Assembly (NCBI RefSeq): GCF_900243075.1
Contig: NZ_OEZH01000170.1
Span: 1-34,483, forward strand
Length of the DNA: 34,483 bases
Source of the DNA: Clostridioides difficile
Lineage (GTDB): Bacteria > Bacillota > Clostridia > Peptostreptococcales > Peptostreptococcaceae
Direction: 5' to 3'
Each line of letters begins with the position of its first letter. The first letter of the stretch is position 1. The notes below the pieces were generated by a model. That model did not search any database and was not told the DNA's origin. It saw only the letters and a list, made by a program, of their open reading frames with translations. Shown piece after piece: positions 6,454-10,347 of this stretch. Made by a program: the position numbers and the translations under genes.

Positions 6454-7086
6454 TTAAACTAATTTATCAATATTTCCTGATTTAATATGCTGAATGTTTG
6501 ATTGAATTTTTTTTGATGACCAATCCCACCATTTAATTTCTAATAACTTTGAAATTGTATCATTACTAAATCTCTTTTTTATAATCTTTGCAGGTATTCC
6601 TCCAACAATAGAATATGGTGGGACATCATTAGTAACTATTGCTCTTGTTCCAATAATTGCACCATCACCAATATGTACACCTGACATAATTATAGCATCA
6701 TAGCCTATCCATACATCATTTCCAATTATAATATTTCCTTTATTGTCCCAAGCATCAGTTATATGATTGACATCTAGTCCCCATTCTTCATAAAAGATAG
6801 GAAAAGTATATGTAGATTGTGATTTCATTGTGTGATTTCCACTAGTCATTAGAAACTTTGCGTTACATGCTATTGAACAAAACTTACCAATTATTAATTT
6901 ATCATTGTTTATAGGGTAATGATATAATACATTGTTTTTCTCAAAATCTCTTGGGTCATTATAAAAGTCATTATATATTGTATAATCTCCAACTTCTATA
7001 TTTTCTCTTGTGATTACATTTTTAAGATATACAGTTTGATAATCATTACTTCTTGGGTATATTTTATTTGAATTTGGAATAGTCAT
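6454..7086 (-). CDS. Vat/CatB-type xenobiotic (streptogramin A) acetyltransferase
   Basis: This is a 210-residue left-handed beta-helix acetyltransferase of the xenobiotic acetyltransferase group. Hexapeptide repeats run from about residue 63 to 75 and from 114 to 160 (IIIGNDVWIGYDAIIMSGVHIG). The catalytic histidine motif GNHTM lies between them at His85. Family members acetylate streptogramin A (Vat) or chloramphenicol (CatB) with acetyl-CoA. The drug is not determinable from sequence alone, and chromosomal homologues may act on other compounds. ATG 7086 has AAAGGAGAG 8 nt upstream. A short leader peptide and alternative stems directly precede the gene, the arrangement expected for inducible translational attenuation. 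The length matches Vat proteins (about 209-220 aa). Confidence 0.88.
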   Translation of the reverse strand: MTIPNSNKIYPRSNDYQTVYLKNVITRENIEVGDYTIYNDFYNDPRDFEKNNVLYHYPINNDKLIIGKFCSIACNAKFLMTSGNHTMKSQSTYTFPIFYEEWGLDVNHITDAWDNKGNIIIGNDVWIGYDAIIMSGVHIGDGAIIGTRAIVTNDVPPYSIVGGIPAKIIKKRFSNDTISKLLEIKWWDWSSKKIQSNIQHIKSGNIDKLV

Positions 7087-7139
7087 GTTTAAATCTCTCC
7101 TTTGTAATATGTTGTGCTTTGACTATTCCACTATTACAA
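7076..7139 (-). promoter_or_regulatory. Two mutually exclusive stems around the Vat start (candidate translational attenuator)
   Basis: On the transcript, the leader-ORF 3' end (plus coordinates 7121-7130) is perfectly complementary over 10 nt to 7076-7085, which covers the G of the Vat ATG and codons 2-4. A second perfect 8-bp stem joins 7132-7139 (leader codons 5-7) to 7102-7109, immediately before the Vat Shine-Dalgarno sequence. The two stems interleave, so they would compete or form a pseudoknot. A ribosome held on the leader would cover both left arms and free the Vat start. Confidence 0.6.
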
Positions 7140-7152
7140 TACATCTCTTCAC
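7123..7152 (-). CDS. Nine-codon leader peptide (MKRCIVIVE) upstream of the Vat gene
   Basis: GTG at 7152-7150 is preceded by AAGGAG at a 7-nt spacing, which is a better ribosome binding site than many genes here have. It encodes 9 residues and stops with TAG at 7125-7123, 36 nt before the Vat ATG. Its last codons form arms of the stems described for 7076-7139. Leader peptides of this size regulate cat and erm genes in Gram-positive bacteria by drug-dependent ribosome stalling; that role here is inference. Confidence 0.55.
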   Translation of the reverse strand: MKRCIVIVE

Positions 7153-7461
7153 AAAATCACTCCTTAGATAGTATCCATATTTCAATTTATAATCTATATA
7201 TTTTGTATTTAAAAACAGACTTTTAACTATGTAGTATTTTATAACAATTATATTTTTAATTGATTATATATCAAGATAATAAAACTTGCAACTATTTAAT
7301 TTACATTAATATAAAATAATTTTTAATTTGAATAATATTAATGTTTAGTAGATGCTTAATTTTTAATAGTAATTTGACTATGATATGTTAGATATGGTAG
7401 AACTATGCTTATATAAATTATTTTTGAGTTAGTATTGTTATAGAGTATAGGATTTTTACTG

Positions 7462-9669: not shown

Positions 9670-9996
9670 TTATATTCTATTCTTTTTTATGGTATCTATA
9701 ATTTGTAATATCAGATTTAGCTCTCTTGAATTTAAGCCTTTTAACTCTTCGTCTATATCATTTTCTAAATATGTCTTTCCAATGGGAGTAATATCTTTTA
9801 TAAGAACATCTGCAGAGATATTTAATACACTTACAAATTTTATGAATGTTTTAAGACTTGGATTCTTTTTACCACTTTCGATTTGAGTTATATACCAAGG
9901 CGATACTCCAACCATATTTGCAAACTCTTTTGAAGTTAAATTCGCTTTTTTACGTTCTTCTTTAAGTCTTTTACCTATATAATTCATTATTGTCAC
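9670..9996 (-). CDS. sinR': Xre-family regulator SinR' (SinI)
   Basis: This is a small DNA-binding or antagonist protein of 108 aa from GTG 9996, or 105 aa from the internal ATG at 9987. An Xre helix-turn-helix occupies about residues 8-64 (LTSKEFANMVGVSPWYITQIESG), and a short helical C-terminal tail may serve dimerisation. It is the second gene of a pair, 12 nt after sinR. The C. difficile sin locus has this organisation: two HTH proteins of about 112 and 105 aa that affect sporulation, toxin and motility. In the published work the second protein antagonises SinR. GAGG lies about 6 nt before GTG 9996 but 15 nt before the ATG, so the GTG start looks better supported. Confidence 0.85.
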   Translation of the reverse strand: MTIMNYIGKRLKEERKKANLTSKEFANMVGVSPWYITQIESGKKNPSLKTFIKFVSVLNISADVLIKDITPIGKTYLENDIDEELKGLNSRELNLILQIIDTIKKNRI

Positions 9997-10008
9997 TATT
10001 TACCTCAC

Positions 10009-10347
10009 TTATATTTCTTTATATTTAATGATACATTTTATTAACTCTAACATTGCAATTTGTTCTTTTTTAGTTAATTTATTAATCATTTCATAACATT
10101 CTAAAGGTATAGAGTTATCAATGCCTTCTGCTGTAATAATATTTGCAAATAACAATTCCAGTGGTATATTTAAAGCAGTAGCAATTTTCATTATAATATT
10201 GATAGATGTATTTGTTTCAGCTCTTTCAATCTGACCAATATATGTTGTATGTAAACCTGCCTTTTCTGCAAGAAATTCTTGACTATATCCTAATTTTGTT
10301 CTATAGACTTTTATTCTATCTCCTATTATTTTTCCAATATTTGCCAA
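10009..10347 (-). CDS. sinR: Xre-family pleiotropic regulator SinR
   Basis: This is a 112-residue protein with an N-terminal Xre helix-turn-helix at about residues 10-66 (YSQEFLAEKAGLHTTYIGQIERAE). A C-terminal helical region of about 40 residues probably mediates dimers or contact with SinR'. Length and position match C. difficile SinR, a pleiotropic regulator of sporulation, toxin production and motility reported to be repressed by Spo0A. The start codon is TTG at 10347, chosen because GGAGGG lies 8 nt upstream and no ATG fits. It is the first gene of the minus-strand pair. The upstream region holds three direct repeats spaced 30 and 29 bp apart that may be its operators. I found no exact Spo0A box (TGTCGAA) upstream. 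Confidence 0.88.
   Translation of the reverse strand: MANIGKIIGDRIKVYRTKLGYSQEFLAEKAGLHTTYIGQIERAETNTSINIIMKIATALNIPLELLFANIITAEGIDNSIPLECYEMINKLTKKEQIAMLELIKCIIKYKEI

What the first reader, a model, noticed from the sequence alone, without database searches (positions are those of the whole stretch)
7076..7152. Leader peptide with competing stems in front of a Vat-type acetyltransferase: candidate drug-inducible attenuator
A 9-codon ORF (MKRCIVIVE) has an AAGGAG site at ideal spacing. Its 3' end is perfectly complementary (10 bp) to the acetyltransferase start codon region, and its middle codons form an 8-bp stem ending just before the acetyltransferase Shine-Dalgarno sequence. The stems interleave, so only one state or a pseudoknot can form. 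Cat and erm leaders are the known precedent. A stalled ribosome on this leader would free the start codon. I do not know of a described leader for this gene.
Basis: partly seen in the sequence, partly recalled or inferred. Interest (0 to 1): 0.75.

Follow-up and report, generated by a model that had tools for sequence, protein, structure and literature searches.

The report
Conserved drug-sensing leader before vat gene
Just upstream of a likely antibiotic-inactivating gene in a Clostridioides genome lies a tiny reading frame whose RNA folds over the gene's start; the same arrangement recurs in many gut bacteria, so the gene is probably switched on only when a drug stalls a ribosome on the tiny frame.

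Summary
A 9-codon leader (GTG start, MKRCIVIVE) begins 66 nt before a Vat-type acetyltransferase gene; 11 bp at its 3' end pair with the vat start region. Among 96 non-redundant vat loci found by protein search, 47 of 49 whose protein starts M[ATSM][IV][PS] have the leader, and 0 of 47 others. Leaders read M-[KR]-x-C-I-[VA], then vary in frame and stop; six stop at codon 7 (MRRCIA*). The anti-start helix usually begins 22 nt into the leader, beats shuffles in 64 of 64 loci and shows double changes at 6 of 12 pairs. Best reading: a translational attenuator; a ribosome stalled by a drug at about codon 5-6 opens the helix over the vat start codon. A similar peptide core, with the same AUU isoleucine codon and arm spacing, precedes Mef-like efflux genes that carry a different RNA switch, which hints at a portable arrest peptide. 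Inducer and arrest are untested. No description was found in the open-access text searched. New variant of a known kind.

The parts
7123..7152 (-). leader ORF, GTG start, MKRCIVIVE*, TAG stop
   Evidence: a leader of this form in 47 of 49 protein-found loci with the same type of vat start
7160..7165 (-). AAGGAG, Shine-Dalgarno of the leader
   Evidence: an SD-like word before 64 of 66 leaders, against 22 of 264 control positions
7120..7130 (-). 5' arm of the anti-start helix (UGGAAUAGUCA)
7075..7085 (-). 3' arm of the anti-start helix: U and G of the vat start codon and codons 2-4 (UGACUAUUCCA)
7097..7102 (-). AAGGAG, Shine-Dalgarno of vat, in the loop of the anti-start helix
6454..7086 (-). 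Vat-type O-acetyltransferase gene, 210 aa
   Evidence: NCBIfam Vat equivalog 241 bits, below its cut-off of 300
7247..7274 (-). possible promoter TTGATA-16-TATAAT (11 of 12 matches)
   Evidence: 13 such sites in the region against 14.3 in shuffles, so weak

Best explanation
A ribosome-controlled translational attenuator of the vat gene. SHOWN by comparison: a leader ORF with a Shine-Dalgarno and conserved first six codons M-[KR]-x-C-I-[VA], and an RNA helix between about nucleotides 23-34 of the leader and the vat start (start codon and codons 2-4). INFERRED: without drug the helix hides the vat start codon while the vat Shine-Dalgarno lies in the loop. A drug at the peptidyl-transferase centre or upper tunnel arrests the ribosome once M-K-R-C-I(-V) has been made, at about codon 5-6; its leading edge, 16 nt from the first base of the P codon, then lies near leader nt 28-31, so it opens the outer part of the helix and vat is translated. 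Vat then inactivates the drug and the system resets. A group A streptogramin, or another drug of that site, is the likeliest inducer, because Vat enzymes acetylate group A streptogramins (recalled); this is not shown.
For: Leader in 47 of 49 loci with an M[ATSM][IV][PS] start and 0 of 47 others, helix not used in the selection. Helix: 94.9% of 525 cells paired, 6 pairs and 36 cells with changes on both sides, covariation score 0.276, 0 of 500 shuffles as high on these measures, slid versions 19-47% paired; predicted by RNAalifold unaided; beats 200 of 200 shuffles in 64 of 64 loci. The arm lies 22 nt from the leader start in 54 of 66 while frame and stop vary, six stopping at codon 7, so arrest must occur by codon 6 there. 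SD-like word before 64 of 66 leaders. A similar core precedes Mef-like exporters with the arm at the same distance. Precedents: MsrDL, six residues, stalls with codon 6 in the P site (PMC10314930, passages); C. difficile cplR is induced through leader MRI (PMC10201436, passages).
Against: No induction, toeprint, profiling or transcript-start data. Vat scores below the NCBIfam cut-off, so its substrate is unproved. The count of further pair types is not above shuffles (139 of 500) and the shuffle control ignores kinship. The search word itself fixed Cys at codon 4 and Val/Ala at codon 6. Two loci with the vat start lack the leader (L010, L073), and acquired vat(E) with an MTIP start has none. 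The fold energies are ordinary.
Confidence: 0.82

Rival explanations
1. The leader responds to amino-acid shortage or general translation stress (a ribosome waiting at Cys4 or Ile5) rather than to a drug.
For: Cys and the AUU Ile codon are nearly constant; AUU rather than Ile alone is kept in both leader families.
Against: The genes downstream, a Vat-type acetyltransferase and Mef-like exporters, look like drug resistance. Only one Cys and one Ile codon, unlike multi-codon amino-acid attenuators (recalled). In the MFS leaders Cys is often replaced (10 of 18 have C-I-[AV]).
Confidence: 0.06
2. The helix only keeps vat translation low or couples it to leader translation; no specific arrest is involved.
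For: The helix is the best supported feature; any ribosome passing or ending at the arm opens it for a moment.
Against: It does not explain the kept codons 2-6 and AUU, nor the same core before an unrelated gene family.
Confidence: 0.09
3. One reading: two interleaved stems, the second masking the region just before the vat Shine-Dalgarno, compete or form a pseudoknot.
For: Stem 2 is perfect in the window and has 6-8 of 8 pairs in its 13 nearest aligned relatives, with one double change in L014.
Against: 0-6 pairs in the other 31 of 45 aligned loci; no better than shuffles in 61 of 64. The region is AT-rich.
Confidence: 0.02
4. Transcription attenuation, as for many ABC-F resistance genes, rather than control of translation.
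For: Common for C. difficile cplR and B. subtilis vmlR (PMC10201436, PMC9226507, passages).
Against: No terminator-like site on the coding strand between leader and vat; the conserved helix covers the start codon instead.
Confidence: 0.01

Closest known systems
Translational attenuators of erm and cat resistance genes (detail recalled; erm abstracts seen in search listings)
   Same: Short translated leader; RNA pairing that hides the ribosome-binding site of the resistance gene; a stalled ribosome would free it.
   Different: One helix straight from leader to start codon, no supported second stem; different leader residues; different gene.
cplR leader of C. difficile (PMC10201436, passages)
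   Same: Same organism group; leader-controlled resistance to streptogramin A, pleuromutilins and lincosamides.
   Different: Leader is M-R-I, with an intrinsic terminator and SD masking; protects the ribosome rather than modifying a drug.
MsrDL hexapeptide leader (PMC10314930, passages)
   Same: Six-residue leader that arrests with codon 6 in the P site; compare MRRCIA*.
   Different: MYLIFM, senses macrolides, transcription attenuation; there synonymous recoding mostly preserved regulation, whereas here AUU is kept.
Leaders of Mef-like MFS exporters found here
   Same: Ile(AUU)-Ala/Val at about codons 5-6, often after Cys; RNA arm starts at the same distance.
   Different: A leader hairpin plus a separate helix over the Shine-Dalgarno; unrelated downstream protein.

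Membership tests
Ribosome-mediated translational attenuator of a resistance gene (erm/cat class) | short upstream ORF with translation signals, conserved | tested here: met
Ribosome-mediated translational attenuator of a resistance gene (erm/cat class) | RNA structure that hides the SD or start codon of the main gene | tested here: met
   start codon helix; the SD itself lies in the loop
Ribosome-mediated translational attenuator of a resistance gene (erm/cat class) | alternative structure formed when the ribosome stalls | tested here: not met
   the proposed second stem is no better than chance; simple unmasking would not need one
Ribosome-mediated translational attenuator of a resistance gene (erm/cat class) | drug-dependent arrest on the leader and induction of the gene | not testable with these tools
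   needs toeprinting and a reporter
Vat streptogramin A acetyltransferase | NCBIfam equivalog score at or above cut-off | tested here: not met
   241 bits against 300; 48% identity to Vat(E) over 201 residues
Vat streptogramin A acetyltransferase | hexapeptide-repeat fold family and catalytic histidine (role recalled) | tested here: met
   best PDB match streptogramin A acetyltransferase 1khr, 3.5e-51; NH motif aligned
Vat streptogramin A acetyltransferase | acetylates streptogramin A | not testable with these tools
   needs an enzyme assay
ABC-F type uORF attenuator (cplR, vmlR) | three-codon leader and intrinsic terminator | tested here: not met
   nine codons (six at the shortest among relatives); no terminator-like site on that strand
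Any Rfam family | match at gathering score | tested here: not met
   0 matches in the window; in nine relatives (6 MFS and 3 vat loci) only one lysine riboswitch, elsewhere in the L056 locus

The most novel reading that the evidence does not exclude
M-[KR]-x-C-I(AUU)-[Val/Ala] is a portable arrest peptide for a drug of the peptidyl-transferase centre, joined to at least two unrelated resistance families (Vat acetyltransferases, Mef-like exporters) and to two different RNA switches, with ribosome geometry (arm about 22 nt from the leader start) as the common rule. The arrest depends on the AUU codon itself and not only on isoleucine, which would be a new feature for a drug-sensing leader.
Probability: 0.4. 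Interest if true: 0.8.

Novelty: new variant of a known kind. Interest (0 to 1): 0.62.

Why it matters
If right, vat genes of this type in Clostridioides and many gut Firmicutes stay silent until a drug is present, so tests without induction could miss them. For streptogramin A, pleuromutilin and lincosamide drugs, the link between leader residues and drug is an open question (PMC10201436, passage). A short core shared by two resistance families gives a compact, directly testable arrest peptide. The nearly constant AUU codon is an unexplained constraint.

Tried and rejected
Second stem: tested by column pairing and by duplex energy against 200 mononucleotide shuffles per locus; rejected beyond the nearest relatives. 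The same test (codons 4-7 against the spacer) found no general pairing partner for the nearly constant UGCAUUG. Terminator before vat: none on that strand. Known RNA family: none. Leader before acquired vat(E) and two Bacteroidales plasmid relatives: none; vat(E) also begins MTIP, with an IS30 transposase gene ending about 65 nt upstream. Weak model hits (7 of 13, E 0.001-0.01): no vat next to them, treated as chance. Of 18 pattern hits (0 for the backwards control), 4 precede vat, 2 precede MFS genes and 12 were set aside as coding or unexplained. One single leader origin on the protein tree: not seen, about 15 changes, 6 forced by well supported branches. Literature: nothing relevant found in open-access PMC text; subscription journals and preprints are not covered, and the paper I tried by DOI for C. 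difficile transcript ends is not held.

Rows dropped: exact duplicates before alignment; L060 left out of A1 (45 of 46 used, insertion); L132 and L067 left out (leader over 120 nt from vat; 64 of 66 used); 4 loci without upstream sequence or start; of 18 MFS leaders, 15 had a clear SD word and 12 of these went into A2. A first try to file this report (after) was garbled in form and was returned; I then rechecked counts and ran.

Full report
What is in the window. On the minus strand a 210-aa Vat-type acetyltransferase gene (7086-6454) is preceded by a 9-codon ORF, GTG AAG AGA TGT ATT GTA ATA GTG GAA TAG (7152-7123; MKRCIVIVE), with AAGGAG 7 nt before its start. The second stem is there too. 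Taken alone these features are already unlikely: 22 of 5000 shuffles give a 10-bp match to the start region and 94 of 5000 an AGGAG with a short ORF, though the fold as a whole is not unusually stable. The window is probably Clostridioides: the nearest named records, C. difficile, have 91-93% identical Vat proteins, and 6 of 7 other genomes of the genus carry the gene at E<=1e-40.

Comparison, protein first. Relatives of the Vat protein were collected by protein similarity. I then asked which have, within about 300 nt upstream, a leader whose first six codons fit a loose word (codon 2 Lys/Arg/Ile/Met-Leu type, any codon 3, Cys, ATN or AGN, Val or Ala); the helix was not used. Of 96 non-redundant loci with upstream sequence, 49 have proteins beginning M[ATSM][IV][PS] and 47 of these have the leader; none of the 47 with another start has it, which is also the control for chance matches. 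The exceptions are L010 and L073. Hosts include Clostridium, Intestinibacter, Peptacetobacter, Oscillospiraceae, Lachnospiraceae, Erysipelotrichaceae, one Anaerolineaceae and one Treponema (in the Treponema locus the leader is 211 nt away). On a tree of 112 Vat proteins the leader state changes about 15 times, 6 of them forced by well supported branches, so leader and gene have been separated repeatedly.

The leader as peptide. Over 66 non-redundant leaders (47 protein-found, 19 found later with an RNA model or leader pattern) codon 2 is Lys or Arg in 65; codon 4 is Cys in all (TGC 54, TGT 12; Cys was required by the word); codon 5 is Ile in 63 (ATT 62, ATA 1), else Met 2 and Ser 1; codon 6 is Val 43 or Ala 23 (required). 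From codon 7 on the frame is free: Clostridium-type leaders lack one nucleotide and end in E* or G*, most others read [AST]-G-I-V, and six stop at codon 7 (MRRCIA*, MRRCMV*). The isoleucine codon is never ATC although about 20 of 66 would be expected from the vat genes of the same loci (kinship ignored).

The helix as RNA. In a 45-sequence alignment the 12-pair helix has 94.9% of 525 cells paired, 6 pairs with changes on both sides, 36 such cells, covariation score 0.276 against 0.168 in shuffles (0 of 500 as high on these measures); slid versions pair 19-47%. The number of further pair types is not above shuffles (139 of 500). RNAalifold finds ten of the pairs without being told. Later loci add compensated forms, e.g. 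CCGATATAGT with ACTATATCGG in L130 and L134 (found with the model, so not independent). The duplex beats all 200 shuffles in 64 of 64 loci tested. The same letters are read in different frames, or lie behind the stop codon, so they are kept as RNA rather than as peptide.

The second stem. It has 6-8 of 8 pairs in the window and its 13 nearest aligned relatives and 0-6 in the other 31. Against shuffled spacers it reaches p<=0.05 in 3 of 64 loci; the window has 13 of 200. I therefore drop the competing-stem and pseudoknot part.

Where else the leader occurs. A covariance model matched 13 of 398 genomes of the phylum at E<=0.01: six strong ones, each before vat, and seven weak ones without vat. 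In 391 genomes of the class 17 had E<=1e-4. Of the 14 strong ones 13 precede a vat gene; the other, L136, has the leader and only about the first 19 vat codons. The three weaker ones are a vat with its leader 252 nt away (L132), a leader with no recognised gene (L133) and a leader MILCIAEAPFSQK* before an MFS exporter (L131), whose best models are TIGR00900 and Mef(A), below cut-off. Of 150 genomes of the family of G631 six had E<=0.001, four new ones before vat.

The MFS family. Of 29 MFS relatives with a start in the fetched loci (31 of 150 genomes matched), 16 of 18 at 41% identity or more have a leader of 11-15 codons around the consensus M[KRIL]LCI[AV]xAPC[KR]V. I recognised none in the 11 below 39%, though L162 has a distant look-alike. 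Two more leaders came from the leader pattern. Of these 18, 10 have C-I-[AV] and 15 have I-[AV]; the core isoleucine codon is ATT in 17. The RNA differs: a leader hairpin and a separate helix CTTTGC/GCAAAG over the Shine-Dalgarno (12 sequences). In leaders with A-P-C at codons 8-10 the hairpin arm CTCC starts at nucleotide 23 of the leader, the same place as in most vat leaders. This suggests, without proving, that both switches read a ribosome stopped at the same codon. The likeness is a few residues, so common origin and convergence cannot be told apart.

Mechanism. With the leading edge 16 nt downstream of the first base of the P codon (PMC9226507, passage), arrest at codon 5 or 6 puts it near nt 28-31, inside the arm; arrest at codon 3 would leave it near nt 22, at the arm's edge. 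MRRCIA* leaders allow nothing later than codon 6. MsrDL, six residues, stalls with codon 6 in the P site (PMC10314930, passages). I therefore expect arrest at codon 5-6 and opening of the start-codon helix. The inducer is inferred from the gene only: Vat enzymes acetylate group A streptogramins (recalled), the histidine motif is kept, but the NCBIfam score is below its cut-off.

Known or new. The class of mechanism is old (erm, cat; recalled). C. difficile has a leader-controlled ABC-F gene, cplR, with leader MRI (PMC10201436, passages; 'Vat' and 'acetyltransferase' do not occur in that text). The uORF4u paper has no streptogramin or acetyltransferase entry in its main text (PMC10219788, passages). 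A genome paper lists a 210-aa virginiamycin A acetyltransferase in C. difficile strains (PMC5547579, passages), possibly this gene. Searches for leader words and vat leaders found nothing relevant. I call it a new variant of a known kind.

Noticed in passing
L144-L147, L149-L157, L159, L160, L170, L175, L186 (upstream of MFS genes): Mef-like MFS exporters carry leaders with a similar core (M-x-L-C-I-A/V, then A-P-C-K/R-V) and a different, hairpin-based switch over the Shine-Dalgarno.
   Followed up: partly
leader codon 5 (window 7140-7138, minus strand) and related leaders: The isoleucine codon is ATT in 62 of 66 vat leaders and 17 of 18 MFS leaders and never ATC at the vat leaders, although ATC is common in the genes behind them; unexplained.
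   Followed up: partly
L087:783-1430: In one Clostridioides genome, excisionase-like and truncated integrase-like genes (Tn916 type, recalled) lie directly upstream of the leader in place of the usual upstream region; leader, vat and the next gene are kept.
   Followed up: no
L067:2790-3003: In a Treponema MAG about 150 nt, with an inverted repeat, lie between the leader's downstream Shine-Dalgarno and the vat start.
   Followed up: no
L136 minus strand, leader at base 587, vat start at base 653 of the reverse complement: Leader and about 19 vat codons without the rest of the gene: a remnant.
   Followed up: partly
L022, L025, L033, L048, L053, L061, L080 upstream of vat: Vat genes without the leader often follow closely on the end of one conserved coding sequence (ending like ...QAVYYVQNN...), suggesting another way of control.
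   Followed up: no
window 9670-10347 (-): Two adjacent small HTH regulators (108 and 112 aa) that resemble the SinR pair of C. difficile (recalled, not tested).
   Followed up: no
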